NCBI RefSeq assembly: GCF_007989085.1
Contig: NZ_BJVJ01000013.1
Span: forward strand, 36,902 to 100,901
DNA: 64,000 bases
Reading direction: 5' to 3'
Source of the DNA: Pseudonocardia sulfidoxydans NBRC 16205
GTDB lineage: Bacteria; Actinomycetota; Actinomycetes; Mycobacteriales; Pseudonocardiaceae
Below are positions 12,848-59,977 of this stretch, in pieces. The notes beneath the pieces were generated by a model. That model did not search any database. It worked only from the letters and a program-made list of their open reading frames with translations, and was not told where the DNA came from. A program made the translations under genes and the position numbers. Every line of letters starts with the position of its first letter. Position 1 is the first letter of the stretch.

Positions 12848-12887
12848 GTGAGCGGCAATAGTCGCTATAGCGACTATTGCCGCTCAC
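12848..12887. repeat. 40-bp palindromic element, copy P1 (perfect)
   Basis: Each half begins GTGAGCGGCAATAGTCGC, and the second 20 bases are the exact reverse complement of the first, so the palindrome is perfect with no loop. On the minus strand it is preceded by CCT, as are the other three copies in their own orientation (45551, 45877, 59729). The minus-strand reading frame of the truncated hydrolase enters the element and stops inside it at a TAG. Confidence 0.9.
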
Positions 12888-13050
12888 AGGGTCTGAACCA
12901 GGCGTCGCGGTCGGGGTGGTGGACGCGGCGGGCGGCGGCCATGGCCTCGCCCAGGTCGGCGGCGTGCACGACCGCCATCGACAGCGTGCGGCCCAGCTGA
13001 CCGTCGTAGTCGGCGTCCGTGAAATGGATCCGTGCCGGGTCGCCACTCAT
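12874..13050 (-). pseudogene. N-terminal fragment of an alpha/beta-hydrolase-like protein, truncated in palindrome P1
   Basis: From ATG 13050 the frame encodes only 58 residues: ARIHFTDADYDGQLGRTLSM, then HAADLGEAMAAARRV and DAWF, ending RPCERQ. The first fifty residues resemble, from memory, the N-terminal region of actinobacterial alpha/beta hydrolases (FDxQLLRxL, GGADxGE, DxWY). Those proteins run on for 300 or more residues. Here the sequence ends at a TAG within the palindromic element P1, and no hydrolase continuation is seen beyond it. The simplest reading is a gene whose 3' part was lost or displaced at the element. A real small protein cannot be excluded. Confidence 0.5.
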
Positions 13051-13100
13051 CGTCCTCGTCCCCCTCCGGGTCGGCGGCGGAGCTTCCCTGGGGCCGATCC

Positions 13101-13778
13101 CTAGTTCTTCGCGCCGTGCAGGCGCGCGGACTGCTCGTCGAGCTGCCCGTCGAGGCGCCGGCGCAGGATCGTCACCCACGAGTCCGGCAGCAGGTCGGGG
13201 GTGGTGAGCAGGCGTCGCGCGGCGGGCAGGTCGTCGCGGTCGATGTTCAGCACGCGGTGCACCTCGGCGGCGGTGATCCCGTGCTCGGGCACCCGGATCG
13301 CCTCGACGACGTCGCCGCCGCCGATCCGGCCGGGTTGCAGCACGCGGGCGTAGAAGCCGGTGCGGCCCGTGTTCTGGACGCGGACCGCCATGTCGTGGAT
13401 GCCGTGGTGGGCGGCGAGCTTGAAACACGGGCGGCGCGGCTGGGACACCTGCAGCACCGCCGTGCCCACGGCGTACACGGCCCCGATCACGGCGTCGGAC
13501 TCGAGGATGCCCTCGACGGTGATGTTCTCGCCGAACGCGGGGCGCTCGACGTCGTCGGGAAGGTGCTCCCAGGCCCGGTAGTGCTCGCCCGGGTAGAGCA
13601 GGACCGCCTTGTCGGGCCCGCCGTGGTTCTTCCGGTCGGCCTGTTCGTCGCCGAGGAACCCGAGGGTGCCCACCTCCACCGGGCCGCGCGCGGGGACCTT
13701 CGCCATCGCGGACGGCACGGTGCGCCCGTTCCAGCGCAACGAGTCCGTGTCACCGACGGACACGATCAGCACGCGCAT
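13101..13778 (-). CDS. MOSC domain-containing protein (YiiM-like)
   Basis: The ATG at 13778 is preceded by GGGAGGAG and gives 225 residues. The family pattern is clear: FLGDEQADRKNHGGPDKAVL, then YPGEHYRAWE, AFGENITVEG and the conserved cysteine in QPRRPCFKL (Cys118). MOSC domains act in molybdenum-cofactor sulfuration or, in the YiiM branch, in reduction of N-hydroxylated purines and similar compounds with a bound Moco. The protein is soluble and lies alone between a broken hydrolase and a divergent MFS gene. Substrate unknown. Confidence 0.85.
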   Translation of the reverse strand: MRVLIVSVGDTDSLRWNGRTVPSAMAKVPARGPVEVGTLGFLGDEQADRKNHGGPDKAVLLYPGEHYRAWEHLPDDVERPAFGENITVEGILESDAVIGAVYAVGTAVLQVSQPRRPCFKLAAHHGIHDMAVRVQNTGRTGFYARVLQPGRIGGGDVVEAIRVPEHGITAAEVHRVLNIDRDDLPAARRLLTTPDLLPDSWVTILRRRLDGQLDEQSARLHGAKN

Positions 13779-13959
13779 CGCACGTCTCCTCCCACCTGTC
13801 GGGGCTCCCCGAGGGCCGCAGCTCGGGGCGCGACCCGATGCCGAGTTTTCCACGTTGCCGAGGTGGCAGGCGCCGGCGTCGTCACCGACGCAGCGCTCCG
13901 GACGGGCAGCGTTCACCCCGCCCTGCCGATCCGGCGGTCGTGGGCGACGCTGACCGACG

Positions 13960-15168
13960 ATGCCGCTCACCGCCGCCCTCGACGAACGCGGGCTCCGCCG
14001 GGTCCTGGTCGTGCTGTGCCTGACCCAGATCGTCGGCTGGGGCGTCCTCTACTACGCGTTCCCGGTGCTGGCGCCGTCGGTCGCGGGGGACACGGGCTGG
14101 TCGGTCGCCACCGTGACCGCGGCGTTCTCGGCCGGACTCGTGGTGTCGGCGATCGTCGGCATCTGGACCGGACGCGTGCTCGACCGCATCGGCCCGCGGC
14201 CCGTCATGACCGTGGGATCGGTCCTCGCCGTGCCCGCGGTGGTCGGGGTCGCGTTCGCGCCGACGCTGCCGCTGTTCGTGGCGGCGTGGCTGGTGGCGGG
14301 CGTCGCGATGTCGGCGACGCTGTACCCACCCGCGTTCGCCGCGCTGACCCGCTGGTGGGGGCCGCGGCGGGTCACCGCGCTCACCGCCGTCACGATGCTG
14401 GGCGGGCTCGCCGGCACGGTGTTCGCGCCGCTGTCGGCGACGCTGCTCGACCACCTCGGCTGGCGGCACACCTACCTCGTCCTCGCGGTCGTGCTCGCCG
14501 TCGTGACGATCCCGGCGCACGCCATCGGGCTGCGCGGCCCATGGCCCGCGGCCGCCCGCACGGGCACGTCGGACGACGACACCGGCGCCCCACGCACGAT
14601 CGCCCGCAGCCGGCCGTTCGTGCTGATCGTCGTCGCCGTCGCGCTCGGGACCTTCACGTCCTTCGCGGTGCTGGTCAACCAGGTCCCGCTGCTGATCGAA
14701 CGCGGCCTCTCCACCCACGCCGCAGCCTGGGCCCTCGGCCTCGCCGGGGTCGCGCAGCTCGTCGGCCGCCTCGGCTACCGACGCATGACCGGGCGCCTCA
14801 CCCCACGCACCCGTGCCGTCGTCATCCTCCTCGCCGCCGCCGCGACCACCGCCCTGCTCGGGCTCGTCCCCGGGCCCACCGCGCTGCTGTTCGGGGCGTC
14901 GCTGCTGATGGGCGTGAGCCGCGGGGTCGTGACGCTGCTGCAGGCCACCGCCGTCAGCGACCGTTGGGGCGCAACGCACTACGGCCGGCTCAACGGGATC
15001 GTCTCGGCCCCGGTGACCGTCGCGACCGCCCTCGCCCCCTGGGCCGGCGCCGCCCTCGCGGGGGTGTTCGGCGGCTACCCGCCGGTGTTCGTGCTGCTCG
15101 CCGGCTGCGCGGTGCTGGGTGCGGTGCTCGCGCTCGGGACGGCGGCACCGGTTCCGGACCACGCCTGA
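13960..15168 (+). CDS. MFS transporter
   Basis: The 402-residue protein has about twelve hydrophobic segments. The opening LRRVLVVLCLTQIVGWGVLYYAFPVL and the following GDTGWSVATVTAAFSAGLVVSA are characteristic of the oxalate/formate-antiporter-like and monocarboxylate-like MFS branch. Motif A is present as GIWTGRVLDRIGPRPVMT. No operon partner is evident; it ends 79 bp before a separately initiated hydrolase gene. The substrate is probably a small organic anion, by family only. Confidence 0.75.
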   Translation: MPLTAALDERGLRRVLVVLCLTQIVGWGVLYYAFPVLAPSVAGDTGWSVATVTAAFSAGLVVSAIVGIWTGRVLDRIGPRPVMTVGSVLAVPAVVGVAFAPTLPLFVAAWLVAGVAMSATLYPPAFAALTRWWGPRRVTALTAVTMLGGLAGTVFAPLSATLLDHLGWRHTYLVLAVVLAVVTIPAHAIGLRGPWPAAARTGTSDDDTGAPRTIARSRPFVLIVVAVALGTFTSFAVLVNQVPLLIERGLSTHAAAWALGLAGVAQLVGRLGYRRMTGRLTPRTRAVVILLAAAATTALLGLVPGPTALLFGASLLMGVSRGVVTLLQATAVSDRWGATHYGRLNGIVSAPVTVATALAPWAGAALAGVFGGYPPVFVLLAGCAVLGAVLALGTAAPVPDHA

Positions 15169-15247
15169 CGCGCGTCGCCGCGAGCCGCGCTCTGATCCAC
15201 TGGTTCCGCTAGCGTCGGGGCCGGGACCCGACGAAGGGGAGACGCGG

Positions 15248-16918
15248 ATGACCACGACGGTCGCAACGGCACCGGCAGCCCGGCAGGCCGGGCGAGGAAT
15301 GCGGCTCGCCGACCGGATCATCGACCGCGTCTGGAAGCTCCCACCCGGCGGCCGCTACACCGTCACCCTCGGCTTGCGCGCACCGATGCGCGACGGCATC
15401 GACCTGATCGGCGACCTCTACACCCCCGCCGACGAGACCCCGCTCGGCACGATCCTCGTCCGCGGCCCCTACGGCCGCACCACCCTCAACAGCCTCGCCT
15501 TCGCCCGCGTCTACGCCGCCCGCGGCTGGCAGGTGCTGCTGCAGAGCGTGCGCGGGACCTTCGGGTCGGGCGGGGCGTTCGAACCCATGCGACGCGAGAT
15601 CGAAGACGGCCAGGACACCGTCGCATGGATGCGCGACCAGCCGTGGTTCATCGGCAGCTTCGCGACGCTCGGCATGTCCTACCTGGGCTTCACCCAGTGG
15701 GCGCTGCTCATGGACCCGCCGCCCGAGCTCGCCGCGTCGGTCATCGTCGTCGGCCCGCACGACTTCAACCGCTCCACCCACGGCATCGGCTCGTTCTCGC
15801 TGGCCGACTTCCTCGGCTGGAGCGACATGGTCGCCCACCAGGAGGACGGCTCGCTCACGCAACGGCTGCTGCGGGAACGCTCCACCCAACGCCGCCAACG
15901 GACCGCCATGGACGGAATCCCGCTCGTCGCGGCCGGTGAGACCCTGCTCGCCGGTCAGGCCCCGTGGTACCGCGACTGGGCCGCCCGGCCCGACGCCGCC
16001 GACCCCTTCTGGAAGCCCATGCAGCTCTCCGCCGCGCTCGACCGCGTCCAGACGCCGGTCCTGCTCGTCGGCGGCTGGCAGGACATCTTCATCCGCCAGA
16101 CCCTCGACCAGTGGGCCCACCTGCGCGGACGCGGCCTCGACGTCGCCCTGACCGTCGGGCCCTGGACCCACACCGACGCCGCCGCCCGCGGTGGCGGGCG
16201 CGTGGTGAAAGAAACCCTCGACTTCCTCGGCGCCCGGCTGGCGGGCCGCCCCGAAGGGCGCCCGACCCCGGTGCGCGTCCACGTCACCGGTGCCGACGCC
16301 GGCTGGCGCGGCTCCGCCGACTGGCCCCCGCCGACCTCACCGCGGGAGCTCTACCTCGAACCCGGCCGCGGCCTCGCGGCGACGGCGTCCACGCAGCCCG
16401 CCGCGCCCGTCACCTTCACCTACGACCCCACCGACCCGACCCCCGCGCTCGGCGGGCCGCTGCTCGACGGCAAGACCGCGGGCGTGGTCGACAACGGGCC
16501 GCTGGAGTCACGCGACGACGTCGTCACCTTCACCGGGGAGCCGCTCACGCGGACGCTGGAGGTGGCGGGCACGGTCGTCGTCGAGCTCGCGCACCGCAGC
16601 GACAACCCGCACGCCGACCTCTTCGTCAGAATCTGCGACGTCGACGAGCGCGGCCGGTCGTTCAACGTGACCGACGGCTTCGTCCGGCTCACCGACGCCG
16701 ACCGCGACCAGGTCGTGCGCGTCGAGCTCGCTGGCACCGCGCACCGCTTCGGCCCCGGCCACCGCGTCCGGCTGCAGATCTCCGGCGGCGCGCACCCCCG
16801 CCTCGCCCGCAACCTCGGCTCGGGCGAACCCGCCGCCACCGGCTCGACCCTGCGCCCGTCGACGAGAACCCTCCCCGTCGACGGCCGCTCCCGCGTGGTG
16901 TTGCCGGTCGTCGGCTGA
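15248..16918 (+). CDS. CocE/NonD family hydrolase (X-Pro dipeptidyl-peptidase S15-like)
   Basis: From ATG 15248 (AAGGGGAGA upstream) the product is 556 residues. It contains the S15 peptidase/esterase core: MRDGIDLIGDLYTPAD near the start, RGPYGRTT, then the nucleophile elbow LGMSYLG with Ser144. The acid-loop region is LLVGGWQDIF, and the catalytic-His region is TVGPWTHTD. The C-terminal third is the beta-rich jelly-roll domain of the CocE/NonD family. The enzyme hydrolyses ester or amide bonds; the real substrate is unknown. No signal peptide is seen. Confidence 0.85.
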   Translation: MTTTVATAPAARQAGRGMRLADRIIDRVWKLPPGGRYTVTLGLRAPMRDGIDLIGDLYTPADETPLGTILVRGPYGRTTLNSLAFARVYAARGWQVLLQSVRGTFGSGGAFEPMRREIEDGQDTVAWMRDQPWFIGSFATLGMSYLGFTQWALLMDPPPELAASVIVVGPHDFNRSTHGIGSFSLADFLGWSDMVAHQEDGSLTQRLLRERSTQRRQRTAMDGIPLVAAGETLLAGQAPWYRDWAARPDAADPFWKPMQLSAALDRVQTPVLLVGGWQDIFIRQTLDQWAHLRGRGLDVALTVGPWTHTDAAARGGGRVVKETLDFLGARLAGRPEGRPTPVRVHVTGADAGWRGSADWPPPTSPRELYLEPGRGLAATASTQPAAPVTFTYDPTDPTPALGGPLLDGKTAGVVDNGPLESRDDVVTFTGEPLTRTLEVAGTVVVELAHRSDNPHADLFVRICDVDERGRSFNVTDGFVRLTDADRDQVVRVELAGTAHRFGPGHRVRLQISGGAHPRLARNLGSGEPAATGSTLRPSTRTLPVDGRSRVVLPVVG

Positions 16919-16960
16919 GACGCCCCGGCGGGGAGCGATCGACGCGAGGTCCGGCGCGTG

Positions 16961-18184
16961 TCACGACCCCGCAGGTCGGACCGACTCTCGGCCGTCGGGT
17001 CCGGACAGCCCCAGGGCGGCCAGCGCCGCGAGCGACAGTTCACCCGCCACCGTCGGGTAGCGCCGGAAGTGGGGGATCCTTGCGCAGTCGTCGACGATCG
17101 TCTTCGCGGTCTTGACCAGCGTCGCGGCGTCGGCGTCGGAAAGGCCGGGGCGGGCCACCGTGAGCCAGCGCTGCCATTCGGCCAGATTGTCGGCCTGAAT
17201 CCGGTCGATGCGCTCGCGGGCGGCGTCGGGTAGGTAGAGCCGTTCGGTGAGCCAGACGGCGAGGAGATCGGTCGCGTCGAGTGCGACGCGGACGTACCCG
17301 TCGACGAGCCGGCCGAGAACCGCGGCATCCGGGCCGGGGGTGCGCAGGGCGCGGATCGTCTCCAGGGCCAGCCACTCGTGCAGCCGGGTGACGGCGGCGA
17401 CCAGGACGTCGGCCTTGGTGTCGAAGTAGCGGTACAGGGCCGGCCCGACGACGCCGACCCGGCTGCCGATGTCGTCGATGCCGACGCCCGCGAAGCCTTT
17501 CGCGCGGAACTCGGTCGCCGCGGCAGACACCAGCTGCTCCCGACGGGCCAGCGGGACGCGTTCGGCGGACCGCGCAGGCTCCTCCGCGGCGGGCGCCGCC
17601 GGGGCGTCGATCACCCGCCTGCTCGCCGCGGCGAGCTCCCGGGAGAGATGAGCCCGGGGGAGCGGACTGTCGTAGAACCCGGCGCCGGAGATGACGCTGA
17701 CGATCACCCAGCTGCGGATGTCGGTGACCTGAGCGCCCAGCTCGGGCTGCCGGTCGGCGAGGAGCAGCTGGTCCAGCTGGTCGGCGATCCACCGCGTCCG
17801 GCTCCGGACCAGCCGGAAGTCGTCGGGGTCGAGGTGGCGTGCCTCGCGCTGCCACAGCAGGGAGAGTCGCCGACTGTCCAGCGCGGCCTCGGTGAGCGCG
17901 GCCAACGTGGTGTCCAGGTCGCGTCGCCCGGGTGGCTGCGCGCTCAGCTCCGTGATCGTGTCGACGACGTGTTGCTGATCCTCCAGCACCACGTGGGAGA
18001 GCAAGGCCTGCTTGTTGGCGTAGTGGCGGTACAGGGCGCGGGCCGTGATGCCGCTCGCCTCCGCGATGTCGTCCATGCGCACGGCGTGGAAGCCACGGAC
18101 GCTGAACAGCTCGCCGGCGTTGCGGGCGATCTCGGCCCGCCGGTTGCGTGGCCGCGAACGCGGCGGCGCGCTCGCTGCGTCCAT
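16961..18184 (-). CDS. Tandem double-TetR transcriptional regulator
   Basis: The 407-residue protein consists of two complete TetR modules in a row. The first helix-turn-helix is at about residues 20-60 (MDDIAEASGITARALYRHYANKQAL). The second is at about 220-265 (IDDIGSRVGVVGPALYRYFDTKADVL). Each is followed by an all-helical ligand-binding half. TetR proteins normally act as dimers, so this fusion could act as a covalent dimer. It lies 28 bp downstream of the SMP-30 gene, at the end of the seven-gene catabolic operon that starts at 24623, which it probably controls. Confidence 0.85.
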   Translation of the reverse strand: MDAASAPPRSRPRNRRAEIARNAGELFSVRGFHAVRMDDIAEASGITARALYRHYANKQALLSHVVLEDQQHVVDTITELSAQPPGRRDLDTTLAALTEAALDSRRLSLLWQREARHLDPDDFRLVRSRTRWIADQLDQLLLADRQPELGAQVTDIRSWVIVSVISGAGFYDSPLPRAHLSRELAAASRRVIDAPAAPAAEEPARSAERVPLARREQLVSAAATEFRAKGFAGVGIDDIGSRVGVVGPALYRYFDTKADVLVAAVTRLHEWLALETIRALRTPGPDAAVLGRLVDGYVRVALDATDLLAVWLTERLYLPDAARERIDRIQADNLAEWQRWLTVARPGLSDADAATLVKTAKTIVDDCARIPHFRRYPTVAGELSLAALAALGLSGPDGRESVRPAGS

Positions 18185-18212
18185 GCCGTGGCCTCCTCCC
18201 GCCGCACGGATC

Positions 18213-19073: not shown

Positions 19074-20670
<1,597 letters not shown>

Positions 20671-20674
<4 letters not shown>

Positions 20675-28944: not shown

Positions 28945-29150
28945 CCGAGCGCAACCTCAGCGCTGTCTCGGGCACGTCGGACAGCGGTCAGGTTGCGCTC
29001 GGTCTGTCGGGCGCAACCTCAGCGTTGTTCCGGGCCCGAACCGCAGCAGTGAGGTTGCGCGCGGGTGAAGGGCGATCCGCGGTCGGACTCGAATCGCGCG
29101 CAACCTCACTGTTCGTTCCGGCTCGAAAAACAGCAGTCAGGTTGCGCGCG
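28945..29150. repeat. Cluster of three GCGCAACCT hairpins in a convergent intergenic gap
   Basis: Three inverted repeats follow each other in the gap between a plus-strand TetR gene and a minus-strand hydratase gene. The first has 23-bp arms at 28945-28967 and 28980-29002 (two mismatches). The second has exact 10-bp arms GCGCAACCTC at 29011-29020 and 29051-29060. The third has 17-bp arms at 29095-29111 and 29134-29150 (one mismatch). All share the core GCGCAACCTCA. The same family recurs at 60734-60864. Placement between converging genes suggests a role as bidirectional transcription ends. Confidence 0.8.
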
Positions 29151-43269: not shown

Positions 43270-45243
43270 ATGCCCGACGCCCACCGCGCCACCGGCCCCG
43301 TGGGGCTGCCCACCGTCACCGCCGACGACGCCGCCCTGCGCGATGCGCTCGTCGCCGGGAACATCCCCACGCTGCTGCTCGTGCTGCGCACCCTCACCGG
43401 CGACCCGCGCTGGTTCTCCCCGCCGTACCGGCCCTCGCGCACGATCGCGATGAACGACAACGACACCGGCGGCCTGCCAGAGGAGATCCAGCAGGAGATC
43501 CGCGACGCCGTCCTCGACGTGCTGCGCGACCTGCGCGACGGCACCGGGGTGCTCGCCCCGCCGCCGCTCGACGGAGAGCTGATCGCGATGCTCAGCGAGT
43601 CGCTGGGCGAGCAGGTCCCCGCCGAGTACGCCGAGTCGATGGCCGAGGACGCCGGCTTCGTCCCCTCCGACGTCTTCGACGGCCCGCCCCTGGGCGCCGA
43701 CCTCTCCGTTGTGATCATCGGTGCCGGCATCTCCGGCATCTGCGCCGGCACCGCACTGCGCCGCCTCGGCGTCGACGTCACGATCCTCGAACGCAACGAC
43801 GACGTCGGCGGCACCTGGCTCGACAACGACTACCCCGGCGCCGGCGTCGACACCCCGAGCCACCTCTACGCGTTCTCCTTCGCGCCCTGGCCGAGCTGGA
43901 CCCGCTACTACGCCAAGCAGCCCGAGATCCTCGACTACCTGCGCCGCGTCGCCGACCAGGAGGGCCTGCGCCCGCTCATCCGGTTCGGGACGGAGGTGCT
44001 CGGGGCGACCTGGGACTCGCCTTCTTCCACCTGGCGGGTCCGGGTCCGTTCTCGCGAGGGCGTCGTCTCGGAGATCGTGTCCGACGTGCTCGTCAGCTCC
44101 GTCGGCCAGCTCAACCGGCCCGTGATCCCCGCGCTGCCCGGGCTCGACACGTTCCCGGGCCCCGCGTTCCACACCGCCGAGTGGGACCACAGCGTCGACC
44201 TCGCCGGCAAGCGCGTCGGGGTTGTCGGCACGGGTGCGTCGGCGATGCAGGTCGTACCGACCATCGCCTCGGACGCAGGCTCGGTCGTGATCTTCCAGCG
44301 GTCGCCGCAGTGGGTGGCGCCCAACGGGAACTACCTGCGCGAGGTCGACCCCCGCACCCAGCTGCTGTTCGAGCAGGTCCCGTACTACCGGCCCTGGTAC
44401 CGGCTGCGGCTGATGTGGATGTTCCAGGACAAGCTGCACCCGACGCTGCAGCGCGACCCCTCGTGGGAGGGCGCCGCAGACGGCCGCTCCATCAACGCCA
44501 CCAACGACAAGCACCGCGAGTTCTTCACCCGCTACCTGCGCGAACAGCTCGGCGACCGCGACGACCTGATCGCGAAGTCGCTGCCCGACTACCCGCCCTA
44601 CGGCAAGCGGATGCTGCTCGACTGCGACTGGTTCACCACCCTGCGCCGCGACGACGTCTCGCTCGTCACCTCGGGCGTCGCCGCGATCGACGGCTCCACG
44701 GTCGTCACCGACGACGGCGGCCGCCACGACGTCGACGTCCTCGTCTTCGCGACGGGCTTCTCCGCGCGGAAGATGCTGCACCCCTTGGACATCCGCGGCC
44801 GCTCGGGCGAGTCGCTGCGCGAGCGCTGGGGCGACGACGACGCCTGGGCGCACCTGGGCATCGAGGTGCCCGACTTCCCCAACCTGTTCCTGATGTACGG
44901 GCCCAACACCAACCTCGGCCACGGCGGCTCGACGATGTTCCACGCCGAGTGCCAGGTGCACTACATGGTCGAGCTGCTGCGCGCGATGGTCGCCGCCGAC
45001 GTCGCCGCGGTCGAGGTGCGCCCGCAGGTGTGCGAGGACTACGTCGCCCGCGTCGACGCCGCCCACGAGAACATGATCTGGACCCACCCCGGCATGAGCA
45101 CCTGGTACCGCAACGCCGCGGGCCGCGTCGTCACCAACAGTCCGTGGAAGCTGCAGGACTACTGGACGATGACGCGCCGTCCGTCGCTCGACGAGCACCT
45201 CGTGACGCCGGCGCGTCAGAGGTCGTCGAAGGGCGTGGCGTAG
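43270..45243 (+). CDS. Baeyer-Villiger monooxygenase, 4-hydroxyacetophenone monooxygenase type
   Basis: The 657-residue flavoprotein has an N-terminal helical extension of about 140 residues, as in HAPMO. The FAD site is GAGISG at 151-156, the BVMO fingerprint FPGPAFHTAEWD is at 295-306 (FxGxxxHxxxW), and the NADPH-site glycines GTGAS are near 320. These are diagnostic of type I BVMOs, which insert oxygen next to a ketone to make an ester. It has its own operator (O3) and a GGAGGGG ribosome site. Its 3' end overlaps the convergent GNAT gene by 28 bp. Substrate probably an aryl or alkyl ketone. Confidence 0.88.
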   Translation: MPDAHRATGPVGLPTVTADDAALRDALVAGNIPTLLLVLRTLTGDPRWFSPPYRPSRTIAMNDNDTGGLPEEIQQEIRDAVLDVLRDLRDGTGVLAPPPLDGELIAMLSESLGEQVPAEYAESMAEDAGFVPSDVFDGPPLGADLSVVIIGAGISGICAGTALRRLGVDVTILERNDDVGGTWLDNDYPGAGVDTPSHLYAFSFAPWPSWTRYYAKQPEILDYLRRVADQEGLRPLIRFGTEVLGATWDSPSSTWRVRVRSREGVVSEIVSDVLVSSVGQLNRPVIPALPGLDTFPGPAFHTAEWDHSVDLAGKRVGVVGTGASAMQVVPTIASDAGSVVIFQRSPQWVAPNGNYLREVDPRTQLLFEQVPYYRPWYRLRLMWMFQDKLHPTLQRDPSWEGAADGRSINATNDKHREFFTRYLREQLGDRDDLIAKSLPDYPPYGKRMLLDCDWFTTLRRDDVSLVTSGVAAIDGSTVVTDDGGRHDVDVLVFATGFSARKMLHPLDIRGRSGESLRERWGDDDAWAHLGIEVPDFPNLFLMYGPNTNLGHGGSTMFHAECQVHYMVELLRAMVAADVAAVEVRPQVCEDYVARVDAAHENMIWTHPGMSTWYRNAAGRVVTNSPWKLQDYWTMTRRPSLDEHLVTPARQRSSKGVA

Positions 45244-45761
45244 CGGAACGCGCCCCACGGGGCGTCGTCGTCGAGGGCCAGGACCTGGAAGTGCACCCCC
45301 CATGCCGGGTCCGGCGCCTCGATCCCGACGGTCCGGGCGTCGACGAACCCGAAGCGCCCGTAGAAGTTCGGGTCCCCGAGCAGCCCGACGAGCCGCTCCC
45401 CGCGGGTGCGGGCGGCGTCGACGGCGGCGGTGACGAGCGCGCTCCCGATCCCGTTGCCCTGTGCGCCGGGCAGCACACCGATCGGTCCGAGCCCCAGCGC
45501 CTCGGTCTCGCCGACGTGGGCCCGGGTGCAGATGACGTGCCCCACAACCTGTGAGTGGCGATGGTCGCTATCGCGACCATCACCACTCACGACCGCGACC
45601 AGGGAGAACTTCGGCAGGTACCAGGCGCCGCCGCGGAGCCGGTCGGTCAGGGCAGCCTCGATCGCCGGGCTCCCGTCGGGCGGGGCGAACGCGGCGAGAT
45701 GGACGGCGCGGACGGCGTCGTGGTCGGCGGGGGTCTCGGGGCGGATCAGCACGTCGCACAT
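45216..45761 (-). CDS. GNAT N-acetyltransferase with an in-frame palindromic element insertion
   Basis: From ATG 45761 the protein is 181 residues. It has the GNAT pattern IRPETPADHDAVRAVHLAAF, then strand KFSLVAV, then VVGHVICTRA, and the acetyl-CoA loop VLPGAQGNGIGSALV, close to the YhbS-type branch. Between the two central strands, where relatives have a turn of about four residues, this protein has about fourteen: SGDGRDSDHRHSQ is encoded by palindrome P2. The reading frame stays open through the element. The insertion sits in a beta-turn, so the enzyme may still fold. Confidence 0.85.
   Translation of the reverse strand: MCDVLIRPETPADHDAVRAVHLAAFAPPDGSPAIEAALTDRLRGGAWYLPKFSLVAVVSGDGRDSDHRHSQVVGHVICTRAHVGETEALGLGPIGVLPGAQGNGIGSALVTAAVDAARTRGERLVGLLGDPNFYGRFGFVDARTVGIEAPDPAWGVHFQVLALDDDAPWGAFRYATPFDDL
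45551..45590. repeat. 40-bp palindromic element, copy P2 (two mismatches)
   Basis: The halves start GTGAGTGGCGATGGTCGC and end GACCATCACCACTCAC, palindromic apart from two positions. It lies inside the GNAT coding sequence, is read in frame, and is flanked on the plus-strand left by CCT. Its right flank GACCGC is shared with copy P3 in the opposite orientation. Confidence 0.9.
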
Positions 45762-45813
45762 CGTCGAGGGGCCGGACCGTGGTGTCGACCGGATTACCCG
45801 ATGCCCGACTGCA

Positions 45814-45858
45814 CGAACGGCCCTTTCCCGCAACTCGGCTGCGGGAAAGGGCCGTTCG
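45814..45858. repeat. Long hairpin with perfect 19-bp arms
   Basis: CGAACGGCCCTTTCCCGCA at 45814-45832 is repeated in exact inverted form at 45840-45858 around a 7-base loop. It lies in the 161-bp gap between the GNAT start and the end of the alcohol dehydrogenase gene, 18 bp from palindrome P3. It could be a terminator for the dehydrogenase gene (minus strand) or another mobile-palindrome type. No second copy was noticed in the window. Confidence 0.7.
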
Positions 45859-45876
45859 GGCACGACGCGTGCGGTC

Positions 45877-45916
45877 GTGAGTGGCGATAGTCGCTCCAGC
45901 GACTATCGCCACTCAC
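45877..45916. repeat. 40-bp palindromic element, copy P3 (one central mismatch pair)
   Basis: The arms start GTGAGTGGCGATAGTCGC and pair exactly except at the very centre. It is intergenic, 6 bp past the stop codon of the alcohol dehydrogenase gene on the minus strand. In minus orientation it carries the CCT prefix and the GACCGC suffix also found at P2. Confidence 0.9.
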
Positions 45917-45922
45917 AGGGGC

Positions 45923-46966
45923 TCACGGGGTGATGACGACCTTCAGCGCCTGGTTCGCGGCGGCGTTCTTGAAGACGTCGTAGGCCTCGTCGATCTGGTC
46001 GAACGTGAAGCGGTGCGTGCCCATCTTCTCCGCCGGGATGCGGCCGCTCGCCACCATCTTCAGCAGCGTCGGGATCGACACCGTGTCGACCAGCCCCATG
46101 GTCAGCGTGACGTTGCTGATCCACATGTCCTGCATCGGCAGCTCCACCGGCGTCCCGTGCACGCCGACGTTGGCGATCGTGCCGCCGGGCCGGACGAGCG
46201 AGGCCGCGGTCAGCAGCGTCTCCGGGTAGCCGACGGCCTCGATCGCGACGTCGACCCCCAGACCGTCGGTGAGCGCGGTGACGTCGCCGACCGTGCCGGG
46301 CCCGACCTCGACGGCGTCGGTCGCGCCGAACTCCAGGGCCTTCTCCAGCCGGAACTTGTTGGAGTCGATCGCGATGACGCGCGAGGCGCCCCACAGCCCG
46401 GTCGTGAGGACCGCGGAGAGACCGACCGCGCCGGCGCCGACCACCGCGACCGTGTCGCCCGGGCGCACCCGGCCGGCGAGGACGCCGACCTCGTAGCCGG
46501 TGGGCAGCGAGTCGGCGAGGAAGATCGCCTGCTCGTCGGACACGCTCTCGGGCACCTTGTAGAGCGAGGTGTCGGCGTAGGGGACGCGGACGAACTCGGC
46601 CTGGGTGCCGTCGATGAGGTGGCCGAAGATCCAGCCGATCCCGCCGACGGTCTGGCAGTGCGACGGCATCCCGCGCTGGCAGTACTCGCAGCGGCCGCAC
46701 TTGGTGATGGCCGGGACGAGGACGCGGTCACCGACGGCGAACCCGCTGACCGCGTCACCGACCGCCGTGATCGTGCCGACGGCCTCGTGGCCGAGGATGC
46801 GCCCGTCGGTCACGGCGGGCACGTCGCCCTGCAGGATGTGCAGGTCGGTGCCGCAGATCGTGGTCGTGTCGACCCGGACGACGACGTCGGTCGGGTCCTG
46901 CACCGCCGCGTCGGGGACGTCCTCCCAGGCCTTGTCGTCCGGGCCGTGGTAGACCAGTGCCTTCAT
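45923..46966 (-). CDS. Zinc-dependent alcohol dehydrogenase (secondary-alcohol type)
   Basis: ATG 46966 (GGAG seven bases upstream) gives 347 residues: MKALVYHGPDDKAWEDVPD, the catalytic-zinc segment TTICGTDLHI and GHEAVGTITAVG, the structural-zinc cysteines in ITKCGRCEYCQRGMPSHC, and the cofactor motif VVGAGAVGLSAVL. This branch includes NAD(P)-linked isopropanol and related secondary-alcohol dehydrogenases. The AcoR-type regulator gene lies just upstream in the same direction, which suggests it controls this enzyme. Confidence 0.88.
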   Translation of the reverse strand: MKALVYHGPDDKAWEDVPDAAVQDPTDVVVRVDTTTICGTDLHILQGDVPAVTDGRILGHEAVGTITAVGDAVSGFAVGDRVLVPAITKCGRCEYCQRGMPSHCQTVGGIGWIFGHLIDGTQAEFVRVPYADTSLYKVPESVSDEQAIFLADSLPTGYEVGVLAGRVRPGDTVAVVGAGAVGLSAVLTTGLWGASRVIAIDSNKFRLEKALEFGATDAVEVGPGTVGDVTALTDGLGVDVAIEAVGYPETLLTAASLVRPGGTIANVGVHGTPVELPMQDMWISNVTLTMGLVDTVSIPTLLKMVASGRIPAEKMGTHRFTFDQIDEAYDVFKNAAANQALKVVITP

Positions 46967-49192: not shown

Positions 49193-49229
49193 GGTGGGAG
49201 GCGGGCGCGCGGGGGCCGATCTCCGTCAC

Positions 49230-49615: not shown

Positions 49616-49619
49616 AGCT

Positions 49620-51800: not shown

Positions 51801-51816
51801 GTCACCCCCGGCCCGG

Positions 51817-55647: not shown

Positions 55648-57036
55648 CTACAGCTCCACCGGGTCGTAGACGGTCCGCCACGGCCGCACCTCGTGCGCGA
55701 TCCGCTTGATGTTGATCAGGTGCAGCGGCGTCACGTTGTCCGAGCAGATCGAGCCGCTCCACGTGCCCGTGCCGAGCTGGAACGAGGGATCGACCTCCGT
55801 CGAGAACCCCATGCCGCCGAACAACGCCGGGGTGTTGACGACGATCCGCCCCGCCGGGAGCGCCCCGAACGGCGCGATCTCCTCCGGGTCCGACGCGTGC
55901 ACCGCGGTGGTGTGGCCCTCGCCGTCGAGGGCGAGGATCTCGCGGCAGCGCCGCAGACCCGCCGCGGGATCGGGCACCTGGTAGACCGACAGGACCGGTC
56001 CGAGGATCTCCCGCGACAGCGGCGTGTCCGCGCCGACGGCGTCGAGCTTGCAGGCCAGCACCCGTGTCGTCGACGGGACGCCGAACCCGGCCAGCTCGGC
56101 GAGCTTGATCGCGGTCTGCCCCACCGAGTCCGGGCGCAGCGCGCCGCGCTCGTCGAACAGCACCCGCACGAGCGCTGCCTGCTGCGGAGCGTTCATCCAG
56201 TAGGCGCCGCGGGCCTCGAACGCGGTCAGGAACGCGGGCGCGACCTCGTCCACGACGACGACCGACTGCTCGGCGACGCAGGCCGTCCCGTTGTCGAACG
56301 ACTTCGAGGTGATGATCATCTCGGCGGCCTCGGCCGGGTCGGGCACGCTGACGCCGACGTAGGCCGGCACGTTCCCGGCGCCGACGGCGATCGTTGGCTT
56401 CCCGCTGGAGTAGGCCGCCCGGACCATGCCGGGCCCGCCCGTCGCCAGGACGAGCGCGATCTCCTTGCGGCTCATGAGCTCCCGGGTGGCGGGCAGGGTC
56501 GGGTTCTCCAGGCAGGAGATCAGGCCCTCCGGGGCACCCGCCGCCACCGCGGCCCGCGCCATGACCTCCGCGGCACGCAGCGTGCAGCGGGCGGCACGCG
56601 GGTGCGGCGCGAGCACGATCGCGTTGCCCGACTTCACCGCGGCCAGGCACTTGAACAGCGCCGTCGACGTCGGGTTCGTGACCGGGATGATCCCCGCGAT
56701 CACGCCCATCGGGCAGCCGACGGCCGTCACCCGGGCCTCGTCGTCGACCCACAGGACGCCGACGGCGCGGCGCTCCAGCATCCAGCGCGCGACGAAGCCC
56801 GTGTTGTAGCGGTTCTTGTGGATCTTGTGCTCGTAGACGCCGTACCCGGTCTCGTCGACGGCGAGCCGGGCCAGCTCCTCGGCCGCGGCGGTCCCGGCCC
56901 GGGCCATGGCCCGCACCCAGCCGTCGAGCGTGTCCTGGTCGGTGCCCTCGAGCTGCTCGAAGGCGCGCCGAGCGGCCCGGGCCTTCACGCGGACGTCTGC
57001 GAGGCCGGCCAGATCGGCGTCCAGTGCTGCGGTCAT
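55648..57036 (-). CDS. CoA-acylating aldehyde dehydrogenase (EutE/PduP family)
   Basis: The 462-residue protein has the acylating aldehyde dehydrogenase fold: GVIAGIIPVTNPTSTALFKCL, APHPRAARCTLRAAEVM, LATGGPGMVRAAYSSGKP and the catalytic Cys253 in FDNGTACVAEQ. It converts an aldehyde, NAD+ and CoA to acyl-CoA and NADH. The N-terminal 20 residues are helical but do not clearly match the PduP tag. It is the core catabolic enzyme of this locus. The source of its aldehyde is not encoded in the window. A gap of 85 bp separates it from the shell gene upstream. Confidence 0.92.
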   Translation of the reverse strand: MTAALDADLAGLADVRVKARAARRAFEQLEGTDQDTLDGWVRAMARAGTAAAEELARLAVDETGYGVYEHKIHKNRYNTGFVARWMLERRAVGVLWVDDEARVTAVGCPMGVIAGIIPVTNPTSTALFKCLAAVKSGNAIVLAPHPRAARCTLRAAEVMARAAVAAGAPEGLISCLENPTLPATRELMSRKEIALVLATGGPGMVRAAYSSGKPTIAVGAGNVPAYVGVSVPDPAEAAEMIITSKSFDNGTACVAEQSVVVVDEVAPAFLTAFEARGAYWMNAPQQAALVRVLFDERGALRPDSVGQTAIKLAELAGFGVPSTTRVLACKLDAVGADTPLSREILGPVLSVYQVPDPAAGLRRCREILALDGEGHTTAVHASDPEEIAPFGALPAGRIVVNTPALFGGMGFSTEVDPSFQLGTGTWSGSICSDNVTPLHLINIKRIAHEVRPWRTVYDPVEL

Positions 57037-57121
57037 CTCCCACCTCGGAGGTCGGACGGACGTGCGGGCACGGCGGGGCCGCGGGACACCTGGGATCGGC
57101 GCCCGCTACCCGTGCGCCGGG

Positions 57122-57451
57122 TCAGCTCTTCGGGCGGGTGAGGACCGCGAGGATGCCCTCGGTCTCGTCGTGCGGGCGGGGGATGACGTGCACGGACACG
57201 ACCTCGCCCGCCTTGCCCGCGGCGACCGCGCCCGCGTCGGTGGCGGCCTTCACCGCGCCGACGTCGCCACGCACCATGACCGTGACCAGGCCGCCGCCGA
57301 TCTCGCGGTGCCCGACGATCTGCACGTTCGCGGCCTTGACCATCGCGTCGGCGGCCTCGATGGCGCCGACCAGGCCCTTCGTCTCGATCAGGCCCAGCGC
57401 GCCGCGCGGCGTCGCTGGTGCGGCAGGGGTTCCCGCGGCGGTGGTCGCCAT
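57122..57451 (-). CDS. Bacterial microcompartment shell protein, BMC-H (second copy)
   Basis: ATG 57451 has GGAGG five bases upstream and gives 109 residues. After a 15-residue Ala/Thr/Pro tail comes the BMC domain, [57 protein letters not shown], then the tail [16 protein letters not shown]. It is strongly similar to the protein at 49322 over the whole domain, so the two are probably recent paralogues that can mix in facets. It is second in the minus-strand operon. Confidence 0.95.
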
Positions 57452-57489
57452 GTCGTCCTCCATGTCGGTGTGCTGAGTGCTCGGGTGGC

Positions 57490-57783
57490 TCAGGACTTGC
57501 GGTAGCTCACGGTTCCCGAGCGGATCACGGTGTCGGCGATGGCGACGACCGCGCGGTCGGTCGGGGCGTCGGCGCCGGCGGCAACCCGTGCGGCGCCTCC
57601 CGTCGCGACGAGGACCACCTCGCCCACCCCGGCACCGACGACGTCGACGGCCACGTAGGCCGTCCCGCTCGTCTCCTCCGGGTCGGCGTCCTCGGCGTCC
57701 TGCACCAGCAGCAGGGTGAACCGCTCGAGTCCGGGGTCCTTCACCGTCGAGACGACCTGGCCCAGCACCTTGGCCAGCTGCAT
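57490..57783 (-). CDS. Bacterial microcompartment vertex protein, BMC-P (EutN/CcmL pentamer)
   Basis: The 97-residue protein begins [19 protein letters not shown] and continues with [32 protein letters not shown] and a final [12 protein letters not shown] strand. This is the EutN/CcmL fold that caps the vertices of the shell. It is the first gene of the minus-strand microcompartment operon, with site S2 94 bp upstream. Confidence 0.95.
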
Positions 57784-57876
57784 GCCCGGTCACCCCCGTC
57801 GGTCGGCGGGCCGCACCCGGCGGCTCCGCTGGCCGAACGGTAAGGCGGCCCGCGTCGCGGCTGCGTTATCCCGGAC

Positions 57877-57903
57877 GGACAACGTCTCCGGGTGTCGTTG
57901 TCC
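57877..57903. promoter_or_regulatory. Shared inverted repeat between the BMC operon and the CrtC-like gene (site S2)
   Basis: GGACAAC at 57877-57883 and GTTGTCC at 57897-57903 with a 13-bp spacer repeat the geometry of S1 at 49230. The site lies in the 195-bp gap between the divergent vertex-protein operon and the CrtC-like gene and could control both. The arms extend by one more base pair here (G and C). Confidence 0.65.
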
Positions 57904-57978
57904 CCGGACGTACTGGCCGCAGCTCCCGGACCGACGAGACTGGTCGGACACGACGCCGCCGTGCCAGGAGGTTCACCG

Positions 57979-58986
57979 GTGATCCGCCCCGAGGACGCGC
58001 AGTTCCACGCCCCGACCAGCGACGACCCCCTGTGGGCCGAGACCAACTACTTCGGCCTCTACGCGGGCCAGGACACCGACCGGCCGATGAACATCGGCGT
58101 GTACGGGCTGTTCCGCGAGCCCCTCGGCGTCGTCGGGTCGACGGTGTCGGTCAACAGCCGCCGCGTCACGATGCCCTGGGCCGCCGACTACTGGGACGCC
58201 TGGGAGCACCTCGTCGTCCCGCAGCCGTCGAACCTGCTCGACTACACCCTCGCCAACGGGCTGCACGTCGTCTGCTCCGAGCCCAACAAGGTCTGGGACG
58301 TCGACTACTCCGACGCCGCCGCCGACCTCGAGCTGCACTTCCGCTACACCGCGCTCATGGAGCCCTACGACATCAACGACCCCGACCAGGACCCCAAGGC
58401 CGCCGGCCGGGACATGAACAAGACCTGGGGCCACGCCTACGCCGGGCACTTCGACCAGACCGGGCACTTCGAGGGCGAGATCCGCCTGCGCGGCACCACC
58501 ACACCCATCGACTGCGTGTCCACGATGGACCACAGCTGGGGGGTGCGCGCCGAACGGCAGACGTCGCGGCTGAGCTGGATGCACGCCCACGTCGGCCCCG
58601 ACCTCGCGCTGCACGCCCTGTTCGACTTCACCACCGACAACGGCCCCGACGGCCCCTCCCCGCTGACGATGACCCACGGCTACGTCCTCGACAACGGCGT
58701 CGTCCGCGGGCTCGCGTCCGGGTCGGGGGAGACGACGCGCTCCGGCCTCTACCCCGAGCACATCGAGATCACCGTGGCCGACGCCGAGGGCCGCACCTGG
58801 GACGCCACCGGCGACGCGTTGACGACGTTCCCCTGGCAGTCCCAGCCCGGCGTCGTCGGCCACAACAGCCTGCTGCGCTGGACCCTCGACGGCCGGACCG
58901 CCTACGGCGAGTGCATGGACTTCGTCGGCATGGGGGAGCTCGGCCGCGTCTACGACCGCGTGCACGCCGCCGCCGCGGGCGTGTGA
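57979..58986 (+). CDS. CrtC/DUF7064-like lipocalin-type protein
   Basis: GTG 57979 has AGGAGG eight bases upstream and gives 335 residues. The sequence resembles the hydroxyneurosporene synthase/AttH-like superfamily (also annotated DUF7064/DUF7065): DPLWAETNYFGLYA near the start, LELHFRYTALMEPYD in the middle, and STMDHSWGVRAER with the conserved His/Trp motif. These are two-domain beta barrels; CrtC is a carotenoid hydratase, and many members have no known role. It diverges from the shell operon and shares site S2, so it may act in the same pathway. Confidence 0.65.
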   Translation: MIRPEDAQFHAPTSDDPLWAETNYFGLYAGQDTDRPMNIGVYGLFREPLGVVGSTVSVNSRRVTMPWAADYWDAWEHLVVPQPSNLLDYTLANGLHVVCSEPNKVWDVDYSDAAADLELHFRYTALMEPYDINDPDQDPKAAGRDMNKTWGHAYAGHFDQTGHFEGEIRLRGTTTPIDCVSTMDHSWGVRAERQTSRLSWMHAHVGPDLALHALFDFTTDNGPDGPSPLTMTHGYVLDNGVVRGLASGSGETTRSGLYPEHIEITVADAEGRTWDATGDALTTFPWQSQPGVVGHNSLLRWTLDGRTAYGECMDFVGMGELGRVYDRVHAAAAGV

Positions 58987-58993
58987 GCCGACG

Positions 58994-59977
58994 GTGAGCG
59001 CCCCGCCGGTCCAGGCGGTGATCTTCGACCTCGACGGCACCCTCGTCCAGACGCGCATCGCGTCCTGGGAGGTCTTCGAGAAGCTCAACCGGCGACACGA
59101 CCTGGGCGTCGACGAACCCGAGCAGTACTTCGACCTGTTCCGCGGCAACATCTACGACTCGATCGCGAAGCTGTGCCGCGACGAGGCGCACGCCACGCTC
59201 GTCCGCGACGAGTTCCTGCACCTGCTGCGCAGCGAGTACACCCCGCCGCTCGTGCCCGGGGTCGCCGACGTGGTGCGCCGGCTCGCTTCCTCGTCCACCC
59301 TGGCGGTCATGTCGTCGAATGCCATGCAGGTGCTGCGGCGCGTGCTCACCGCCAACGACCTGGCGTTCTGCTTCGCCCACGTCTTCGGCGGCGACGTCAC
59401 CCCCGACAAGCGGACCGCCATGCGCACCTTCCTCGCCGACCCCGGCAGCGGCTTCGGCCGCCGCTGCGCCGCCGACTACGACGAGGCCGGCCTCCGGCCC
59501 CTGCCCGATCCCGCCGCCACCGTGCTGGTCACCGACACCGCGGGCGACGTCCGCGACGGGGTCGAGGTCGGCATCCGCGTCGTCGGGGTGGCGTGGGGAA
59601 TGCACAGCGTCGAGGAGCTGACCGCGGCCGGCGCCGAGTTCGTCGCCCTGTGGCCGCAGGAGATCACCGCGCACCTGTTGGGCGACACCGCCTCCGAGCC
59701 CGCAACGGGCGCCTGCGCGGTAGAGCCTGTGAGCGGGAATAGTCGCCATGGCGACTATTCCCGCTCACGAGGGCCGGACGAGCGTGTTCGTGCCGCGTCG
59801 GTGCGCCGGGAACGCCGCCGGGCTGCGGTGCCCGTGTCGCCTGCCGCCCCGCCCTCTCCTGCCGCCCCGCCCCCCTCTGCCGCCCCGCCCTCGTCCGCCC
59901 CGCCCTCGTCCGCCCCGTCGCACCCCTCTGCCGATGCCGAGCTCCTCGACGCCGTCCGACGGGTGGTGCGACGGTGA
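58994..59977 (+). CDS. HAD family hydrolase with palindromic-element insertion and repetitive linker
   Basis: GTG 58994 gives 327 residues. The phosphatase core has AVIFDLDGTLV with Asp12 and Asp14, then AVMSSNAMQVL and DTAGDVRDGVEVGIRVVGVAWG near residue 190. This is the phosphoglycolate-phosphatase-like branch, which normally ends near residue 235. After it comes VSGNSRHGDYSRSRG from residue 246, encoded in frame by palindrome P4. Next is a repetitive Pro/Ala/Ser linker (about 275-310) and a short helical end. The core looks intact. The extension is probably recent. Its stop overlaps the next gene's GTG. Confidence 0.82.
   Translation: MSAPPVQAVIFDLDGTLVQTRIASWEVFEKLNRRHDLGVDEPEQYFDLFRGNIYDSIAKLCRDEAHATLVRDEFLHLLRSEYTPPLVPGVADVVRRLASSSTLAVMSSNAMQVLRRVLTANDLAFCFAHVFGGDVTPDKRTAMRTFLADPGSGFGRRCAADYDEAGLRPLPDPAATVLVTDTAGDVRDGVEVGIRVVGVAWGMHSVEELTAAGAEFVALWPQEITAHLLGDTASEPATGACAVEPVSGNSRHGDYSRSRGPDERVRAASVRRERRRAAVPVSPAAPPSPAAPPPSAAPPSSAPPSSAPSHPSADAELLDAVRRVVRR
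59729..59768. repeat. 40-bp palindromic element, copy P4 (perfect)
   Basis: The halves begin GTGAGCGGGAATAGTCGC and are exact inverse complements with no loop. It lies in the coding region of the HAD gene, in frame (GTG as codon 246), preceded by CCT like the other copies. Confidence 0.9.

What the first reader, a model, noticed from the sequence alone, without database searches (positions are those of the whole stretch)
12848..59768. A dispersed 40-bp palindrome family that sits in frame inside proteins
Four copies (12848-12887, 45551-45590, 45877-45916, 59729-59768) share the arm GTGAGyGGsrATrGTCGC and its inverse. Two are perfect palindromes with no loop. All carry CCT on one side, so the element has an orientation. 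P2 is read in frame in a GNAT enzyme and P4 in frame in a HAD hydrolase, both giving a peptide like SGNSRYSDYRHSQ. P1 ends a truncated gene at a TAG. P3 is intergenic. This recalls the Rickettsia palindromic elements, known to insert in frame, but I know of no such family described for actinomycetes. Whether it is mobile is inference.
Basis: partly seen in the sequence, partly recalled or inferred. Interest (0 to 1): 0.85.

Follow-up and report, generated by a model that had tools for sequence, protein, structure and literature searches.

The report
Gene-end palindromes overwritten in place
Hundreds of 40-base palindromes are scattered through some Pseudonocardia genomes, most of those examined sitting right at the ends of genes and a few inside proteins, and because the same address in related species holds a differently spelled palindrome, the copies are likely overwriting one another by a still unknown process.

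Summary
The four palindromes are real members of a family with 318 copies in this Pseudonocardia genome (control 0); 8 of 62 genus genomes hold 45 or more. The element is oriented: CCCT, 18-bp stem, 4-nt loop, RASC. It is chiefly a gene-end element: 54 of 62 testable copies lie within -20..+30 bp of a gene 3' end, against 4% of random positions. The unexpected result is paired rewriting at fixed addresses. At 15 sites shared with G033, 46 stem pairs changed on both sides, 12 on one. Pairs 10 and 13 changed at 10 of 15 and 9 of 12 sites, against 19% at four-fold sites. Orthologues are no more alike than shuffled partners. Own copies resemble each other more than their orthologues, but G033 copies do not. 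No RAYT was found in copy-rich genomes. Verdict: a REP-like family outside the described REP classes; copying agent and any role in termination are inferred.

The parts
12844..12891 (-). P1: element with flanks; palindrome core 12848-12887, perfect arms, loop TATA; CCT side faces the minus-strand ORF ending at its TAG
12874..13050 (-). small, weakly scored ORF whose stop codon TAG lies inside P1 (element positions 12-14)
   Evidence: no Pfam hit for the longer ORF 12874-13428
45547..45594 (+). P2: element with flanks; core 45551-45590, one mismatched pair; read in frame on the minus strand inside a GNAT protein
45216..45761 (-). GNAT acetyltransferase carrying P2; VVSGDGRDSDHRHSQ stands where most aligned genus members have about 5 residues; predicted loop between strands 54-59 and 70-83
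45873..45920 (-). P3: element with flanks; core 45877-45916, perfect arms, loop TGGA; CCT side 6 nt from the stop codon of the minus-strand gene 45923-46966
45923..46966 (-). predicted gene whose 3' end faces the CCT side of P3
59725..59772 (+). P4: element with flanks; core 59729-59768, perfect palindrome, loop CATG; read in frame inside a HAD hydrolase
58994..59977 (+). HAD-family hydrolase carrying P4 in frame before a conserved C-terminal tail (ELLDAVRRV); in-frame element shared with G033, G010 and G038, absent in 14 other close orthologues

Best explanation
This is a REP-like family of 40-bp oriented palindromes that sits mostly at gene 3' ends and that likely spreads to new sites and is repeatedly overwritten in place by other copies of the same genome. 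Shown: copy number, orientation, core size almost always 40 bp, gene-end address, preference for convergent gaps, two proteins that carry it in frame while orthologues lack it, and paired, partly directional change of both arms at shared addresses. Inferred: the change works at the DNA level; a single-stranded or cruciform hairpin would be repaired or re-copied using another copy's hairpin as template (inter-copy conversion), while fold-back templating keeps the two arms complementary. Also inferred: gene ends are where copies survive, because they are tolerated there and likely act as two-way barriers to transcription or as mRNA 3' ends, and because the element brings stop codons in two of three frames in its common form. 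The copying agent is unknown and is not a Y1/RAYT transposase detectable in these genomes.
For: Copies: 318 in the own genome, control 0; at up to 1 mismatch 13 of 62 genus genomes and 17 of 390 family genomes, in 2 of 46 genera. Address: 54 of 62, 12 of 16 and 18 of 22 testable 40-bp copies (own, G010, G033) have a gene 3' end within -20..+30 bp of an edge, against 4.3-4.8% of random positions (binomial p 3e-65, 2e-13, 6e-21). Against random intergenic positions, 13% per side, the first 52 copies gave 37 on the CCT side and 18 on the other. Convergent gaps 26 of 137, tandem 26 of 587, divergent 3 of 137 in own. Stop codon inside the element in 16 of 45 copies with a gene end on the CCT side (12 TGA, 4 TAG). 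In-frame carriers: GNAT 1 of 13, HAD 4 of 18, all four in copy-rich genomes. Rewriting: at 15 sites shared with G033, 46 compensatory, 12 one-sided, 212 unchanged of 270 stem pairs; orthologous identity 0.790 against 0.788 for shuffled partners, p 0.45; within own at those sites 0.879; inner arms 0.890 within own against 0.720 orthologous, 0 of 2000 bootstraps at or below zero. Pairs 10 and 13 changed at 10 of 15 and 9 of 12 sites where both states pair, against four-fold divergence 19.3% (p 8e-5 and 5e-5); pair 13 against G010 6 of 6 (p 5e-4), 14 of these 15 pair-13 changes being own A-T to G-C (pairs chosen after seeing they vary). In 3 of 5 sites filled in all three genomes G033 and G010 agree on G-C and own has A-T, none the other way. 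Genome-wide forms differ: pair 13 A-T in 53 of 63 own, G-C in 12 of 16 G010 and 13 of 22 G033 copies, while own is not AT-biased at four-fold sites (0.934 against 0.928 and 0.926). Paired change also occurs in the translated HAD copies and alters the peptide. One-sided mismatches show no G.U preference (12 G.U, 17 A.C, 7 other in 101 copies), which speaks for pairing in DNA.
Against: Homogenisation is clear only in own: within G033 copies are 0.770 alike, below the 0.790 of orthologues, and within G010 0.851 against 0.850. A homogeneous ancestor kept by own, with fast independent paired change in G033, would explain part of the data. For G010 the stem differs at 16.0% of pairs and the inner arms at 15.6%, below the four-fold value of 28.5%; the whole stem against G033 is 21.5%, close to the neutral 19.3%. 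One-sided states exist (pair 13 in 3 of 9 G010 sites), which points to stepwise change at least at times. The comparison is small: 15 and 9 site pairs; 3 of 12 filled G010 sites were dropped because the partner was not 40 bp, and full-size decayed copies at 'empty' sites (3 of 12 in G033, 3 of 9 in G010, by eye) were left out. Parallel selection towards a species-preferred hairpin would give the same pattern. No copying enzyme was identified. P2 replaced 15 nt without target duplication. Gene ends come from my own codon-usage gene finder, not from annotation.
Confidence: 0.5

Rival explanations
1. The palindromes are U-tract-free two-way transcription terminators (or mRNA 3'-end protectors) kept by selection on the hairpin; each species prefers its own hairpin sequence because a trans-acting factor reads it, and mutation plus selection moves the copies to that form.
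For: Gene-end address and convergent-gap preference; very stable RNA hairpins, -33.8 to -43.2 kcal/mol, z -7.8 to -10.4; compensatory changes; one-sided intermediates at pair 13 in G010.
Against: No T run after the stem (flank consensus RASC; 0 terminator-like sites in 45000-46500). No G.U preference among one-sided mismatches. The same paired change occurs in the HAD copy, about 200 nt upstream of that gene's stop codon, where it cannot be its terminator. It needs two substitutions per pair in parallel at many addresses. The GNAT and HAD cases need a spreading step as well.
Confidence: 0.3
2. They are non-autonomous transposons (REP/REPIN-like or MITE-like) that excise and reinsert at the same gene-end hot spots, so that shared addresses hold independent insertions of each species' current master copy.
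For: Clade-limited high copy number; two coding sites with and without the element among orthologues; differing genome consensus.
Against: PF01797 is found in 5 of 62 genus genomes, none of which has the palindrome at up to 2 mismatches. No solitary arms in the arrangement of terminal repeats in 942 kb of own sequence. Flanks at some shared sites agree to the base (C3:166417 with G010, C3:112915 with G033). Some 'empty' sites look like internal deletions with remnants left (C4:70015 and C3:59633 in G033), not clean excisions.
Confidence: 0.13
3. They are binding or uptake sites read as double-stranded DNA (regulator, nucleoid protein, integrase, or an uptake-sequence dialect) and are palindromic because a dimer binds them.
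For: Conserved outer arm GTGAG and differing genome consensus; uptake-sequence dialects are known in Neisseriaceae (recalled, not from a call).
Against: A dimer site does not require the two arms to change together; 46 compensatory against 12 one-sided changes, and quite different inner arms at a fixed 40-bp length point to the hairpin. No match in viral contigs (exact pattern), plasmids or phages (blastn).
Confidence: 0.05

Closest known systems
REP elements, GTAG- and CGTC-tagged super-families (PMC3733652: abstract, sections 6 and 15, and passages seen)
   Same: Short (20-40 bp) high-copy palindromes; mostly close to gene 3' ends, in convergent and tandem gaps; ends can supply stop codons; some copies inside ORFs; CGTC type has no dedicated transposase.
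   Different: 18-bp stem and 40-bp core here against 8-9 bp stems (CGTC) or 5-13 bp (GTAG); flanks CCCT/RASC, not GTAG and not the CCA tail; no RAYT in copy-rich genomes. Dimers were not tested here. The words Actinobacteria and Pseudonocardia do not occur in that main text.
Rickettsia palindromic elements RPE-4 and RPE-6 (as placed in PMC3733652)
   Same: Palindromic, can sit inside translated genes.
   Different: RPE-4/-6 are CGTC elements with 8-9 bp stems; here 4 of 62 testable own copies lie inside predicted ORFs and the bulk are at gene ends.
REPINs of Pseudomonas fluorescens (PMC3116915: search listing and passages seen)
   Same: Populations of short palindromic repeats that vary within one genome.
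   Different: REPINs are REP doublets tied to RAYTs, with excision reported for doublets; here single palindromes and no RAYT detected.
Stem-loop sequence families in bacterial genomes, including Mycobacterium and Corynebacterium (PMC2267715: passages seen)
   Same: Repeated stem-loop families have been catalogued in actinobacteria before.
   Different: Pseudonocardia was not among the passages I saw; I did not compare sequences with that catalogue.
Coding palindromes of Nematomorpha mitochondria (PMC6649704: passages seen)
   Same: Near-perfect arms inside translated sequence changing together, for which that paper discusses repeat conversion and template switching.
   Different: Those are individual repeats each keeping its own arms equal; here hundreds of dispersed copies share one family sequence.
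Intrinsic transcription terminators without U-tract of actinobacteria (recalled)
   Same: Stable hairpin a few bases after stop codons.
   Different: Primary sequence is shared by hundreds of copies, and some copies lie inside ORFs.

Membership tests
REP (broad class of small extragenic palindromes) | 20-40 bp palindrome in high copy number | tested here: met
   318 copies of a 40-bp palindrome, control 0
REP (broad class of small extragenic palindromes) | Location next to gene 3' ends, convergent and tandem gaps | tested here: met
   54 of 62, 12 of 16, 18 of 22 copies; in own convergent 26 of 137 gaps against 3 of 137 divergent
GTAG REP with RAYT | Unpaired GTAG at one end | tested here: not met
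   Flanks are CCCT and RASC
GTAG REP with RAYT | RAYT (Y1, PF01797) in the genome | tested here: not met
   None in the own genome or in the other seven copy-rich genomes; the 5 of 62 genus genomes that have it lack the palindrome at up to 2 mismatches
CGTC REP (includes RPE-4, RPE-6) | CGTC-like tag at one end | tested here: inconclusive
   The reverse strand of the RASC end often reads GGTC, CCTC or GCTC; CCTC is a described variant of CGTC (PMC3733652 section 6)
CGTC REP (includes RPE-4, RPE-6) | Stem of 8-9 bp starting with A-T pairs, tail CCA | tested here: not met
   18-bp stem starting GTGAG, AGG on the other end; definition from PMC3733652 section 6
Rickettsia palindromic element | Many copies inserted in frame in ORFs | tested here: not met
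   4 of 62 testable own copies lie inside a predicted ORF, one of them probably a wrong-strand call
Intrinsic terminator (E. coli type) | G+C-rich hairpin followed by a U run | tested here: not met
   No T run in the 20-nt flank profile of 52 copies; 0 terminator-like sites around P2/P3
Transcription terminator (any type) | RNA 3' ends at the hairpin | not testable with these tools
   No transcriptome available
MITE | Terminal repeats shared with an autonomous element, target duplication | tested here: inconclusive
   No solitary arm pairs in 942 kb, about one seventh of the own genome; no direct repeat seen at the GNAT site
DNA uptake sequence | Specific uptake of DNA carrying it | not testable with these tools
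   No assay; uptake genes were not examined

The most novel reading that the evidence does not exclude
Pseudonocardia has a genome-wide copy-over system for 40-bp hairpins: any palindrome at a fixed address, even one being translated inside an enzyme, is replaced by the genome's current version through hairpin-templated conversion, so the family evolves as one population while its addresses stay put.
Probability: 0.35. Interest if true: 0.85.

Novelty: new variant of a known kind. Interest (0 to 1): 0.66.

Why it matters
Whether REP-like palindromes evolve by gene conversion has been asked for decades (it is in the title of a 1988 review cited in PMC3733652). Copies that can be followed at the same address across species, with paired change measured against neutral sites and seen inside a translated gene, are what is needed to test it. 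This family offers that: large copy number, fixed size, clear orientation, sequenced relatives at 7-11% coding divergence, and no RAYT detected. If right, it would show a way to spread and homogenise sequence without a classical transposase; if the selection rival is right instead, it would expose a sequence-read gene-end signal in actinomycetes.

Tried and rejected
Chance: rejected, control 0. RAYT-driven REP: no PF01797 in the copy-rich genomes. Phage, plasmid or viral origin: no match. Known RNA family: no Rfam hit at gathering score in the window. MITE with an autonomous parent: no solitary terminal arms in 942 kb, six sevenths of the genome not scanned for this. AT-biased mutation as the reason for the own A-T form at pair 13: rejected, own has the highest four-fold GC of the three. 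Neutral drift with each hairpin only correcting itself: disfavoured at pairs 10 and 13, which changed far more often than four-fold sites in G033, but the whole stem against G033 is near neutral and against G010 below it. RNA wobble test: no G.U bias, which weakens but does not exclude an RNA role. Synteny of C1 with G010/G033 broke at the element at 93969, so C1 was not compared. In 20-kb samples of nine other genus genomes no palindrome of this family appeared, only unrelated hairpins.

Rows dropped before counts: one search leaves out 1 own copy near a contig end and the copies that are not 40 bp long (own 1 of 64, G010 4 of 20, G033 1 of 23); one search leaves out 3 of 12 filled G010 partners not 40 bp long; 36 of 63 own copies had no alignable site in the G033 stretches and 42 of 63 none in the G010 stretches. 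One search leaves out three GNAT relatives of the 15 first given; one of them (L148, G052) has a longer loop without a palindrome, so this loop also varies in length naturally.
Full report
WHAT IS THERE. The window lies on contig C13 of a 6.58-Mb genome in 209 contigs. A genome search with the whole palindrome found 318 copies at up to 3 mismatches, reversed control 0. In the genus, 20 of 62 genomes match at up to 2 mismatches, very unevenly: 318 (own), 149, 118, 109, 83, 83, 75, 45, then 14 or fewer. In the family, 17 of 390 genomes match at up to 1 mismatch, in 2 of 46 genera.

ANATOMY. In 854 kb of own sequence I aligned 52 copies. The oriented consensus is CCCT, GTGAGYGGCRATRGTCGC, a 4-nt loop (mostly TATA), the complementary arm, then RASC. 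CCT and RAS are conserved, so the element is longer than 40 bp and asymmetric; beyond about 4-5 nt on either side conservation ends. Of the 52, 46 have perfectly complementary 18-bp arms although four positions vary, mostly in pairs. In the wider family, defined only by the outer 8 nt and by pairing, the core is exactly 40 bp in 63 of 64 own, 22 of 23 G033 and 16 of 20 G010 copies (reversed controls 0), even when the inner arms are quite different (for example GTTATTGGC, ATTACTGGC, AATCATGGC in G033).

ADDRESS. With a codon-usage gene finder of my own (extended), 54 of 62 testable own copies have a gene 3' end within -20 to +30 bp of an edge, 12 of 16 in G010 and 18 of 22 in G033; random positions give 4.3-4.8%. 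A stricter control on the first 52 copies, random intergenic positions, gives 13% per side against 37 of 52 on the CCT side and 18 of 52 on the other. The commonest CCT-side distances are 4-7 nt after the stop codon, or the stop codon lies inside the element (TGA of GTGAG, 12 copies; TAG of ATAGTC, 4 copies). Convergent gaps hold 26 of 137, tandem 26 of 587, divergent 3 of 137. In loci of seven named species, 67 of 72 testable copies are at gene ends (17 of 18, 19 of 21, 12 of 13, 2 of 2, 12 of 12, 3 of 3, 2 of 3; the SCN 73-27 and CB1190 loci may overlap the G033 and G010 stretches, and the codon table was trained on the own genome).

IN-FRAME CASES. P2 lies in a GNAT protein. In the 12 genus proteins aligned with it the loop is mostly about 5 residues long (10 in one); here 15 residues coded by the element stand in its place. 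One relative left out of that alignment, from G052, has a longer loop without a palindrome, so length varies there naturally. AlphaFold2 places the element-coded residues in a loop between strands 54-59 and 70-83; that block (61-70) has pLDDT 61 in a model with mean 91, so the fold is predicted to be kept. The change is 45 nt in place of 15 nt, without target duplication. P4 lies in a HAD hydrolase before a conserved C-terminal tail. Of 18 close orthologues, 4 (own, G033, G010, G038) carry it in the same frame and 14 lack it. In the four carriers the arms differ mostly in covarying pairs, and the peptide differs accordingly. A third copy, C2:152639, is read at the C-terminus of an ABC-transporter-like protein (named from its sequence, not searched). 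A fourth, C3:86407, lies in a predicted minus-strand ORF that is probably a wrong call.

REWRITING. I compared addresses with G033 and G010 by aligning 500-bp flanks. Own copies: in G033 15 filled, 12 empty, 36 without an alignable site; in G010 12 filled, 9 empty, 42 without. By eye, 3 of the 12 and 3 of the 9 'empty' sites hold full-size decayed or diverged palindromes, and some others look like internal deletions, such as a 22-nt version with a TTCG loop at C4:70015 in G033. At the 15 filled G033 sites the flanks are 91% identical on average; of 270 stem pairs 212 are unchanged, 46 changed on both sides and still pair, 12 changed on one side. For G010 (9 sites of 40 bp): 136 same, 15 compensatory, 10 one-sided, 1 double unpaired. 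Orthologous copies are as alike as copies with shuffled partners (0.790 against 0.788, p 0.45; G010 0.850 against 0.842, p 0.23). Own copies at those same addresses are more alike to each other (0.879 and 0.901), but G033 copies are not (0.770) and G010 copies are level (0.851). On the inner arms the values are 0.890 within own and 0.720 between orthologues (0 of 2000 bootstraps at or below zero), and for G010 0.917 and 0.844 (5 of 2000). Four-fold-site divergence is 19.3% (G033) and 28.5% (G010). So against G033 the inner arms (28%) exceed and the whole stem (21.5%) about equals the neutral value; against G010 the inner arms (15.6%) and the stem (16.0%) lie below it.

The clearest signal is at single pairs. 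Against G033, pair 10 changed at 10 of 15 sites and pair 13 at 9 of 12 where both states pair (p 8e-5 and 5e-5 against 19.3%); pairs 6 and 9 at 6 of 13 and 6 of 14 (p 0.03 and 0.04); pairs 4, 11, 14 and 16 do not exceed it. Against G010 only pair 13 does (6 of 6, p 5e-4). I looked at these pairs because they vary, so the p values are not corrected. The pair-13 changes run one way: 14 of 15 are own A-T against G-C. At 3 of 5 sites filled in all three genomes G033 and G010 share G-C and own has A-T; the other two are mixed. The genome consensus differs accordingly: own GATAGTCGC, G010 GATGGTCGC, G033 AATGGTCGC for the inner arm. Own is not AT-biased at four-fold sites.

MECHANISM. Shown: orthologues with and without the element at two coding sites, fixed addresses, arms changing in step, directional change at pair 13. 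Inferred: DNA-level copying between hairpins, with fold-back correction keeping the arms equal. The lack of G.U preference among one-sided mismatches (12 G.U, 17 A.C, 7 other) and the paired change inside the HAD reading frame favour DNA over RNA selection. Two readings are not excluded: parallel selection by a hairpin-reading factor, and fast independent paired change in G033 from a uniform ancestor. The RNA hairpins are very stable (-33.8 to -43.2 kcal/mol) and a role as two-way terminator without U-tract is likely but untested.

KNOWN KINDS. The location pattern, stop-codon supply and rare copies inside ORFs match what PMC3733652 reports for REPs (abstract, sections 6 and 15, passages). The tag, stem length and tail do not match its GTAG or CGTC families, and no RAYT was detected in copy-rich genomes. 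Stem-loop families have been catalogued in Mycobacterium and Corynebacterium (PMC2267715, passages); I did not compare sequences. Conversion between arms of coding palindromes is discussed for Nematomorpha mitochondria in PMC6649704 (passages). I found no paper on this family; the library holds open-access papers only, so this is weak evidence of absence.

Noticed in passing
window 45810-45862: A second long palindrome (TGCACGAACGGCCC...GGGCCGTTCGGGCA) next to P3; hairpins at own C3:72401 and C4:59832 share the GAACGGC arm. Probably another dispersed hairpin family.
   Followed up: no
window 60729-60840 and 28945-29002: A third hairpin type with arms like GCGCAACCTCA / TGAGGTTGCGC; similar ones at own C2:55443 and C3:177504; the 11-mer occurs 18 times on each strand in 942 kb.
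   Followed up: no
own C1:93969 (L032): The copy sits where synteny with both G010 and G033 breaks: the query before and after it maps to different places.
   Followed up: no
G033 R1/R3 stretches (L191-L200, L234-L240): A subfamily with the same outer GTGAGTGGC and 40-bp length but inner arms of the type GTTATTGGC / ATTACTGGC / AATCATGGC; one similar copy in own at C2:8836.
   Followed up: partly
genomes G347, G351, G357, G363 (another genus of the family): Low copy numbers (2-14) of the palindrome outside Pseudonocardia, which could be an old or transferred branch.
   Followed up: no
G004, G007, G018, G041, G043: The genus genomes with a Y1 transposase (PF01797; 5 of 62) are all free of the palindrome at up to 2 mismatches.
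   Followed up: no
G033 C5, site of own C4:70015: A shortened 22-nt form, 9-bp stem with a TTCG loop and one mismatch, where own and G010 have a full element.
   Followed up: no
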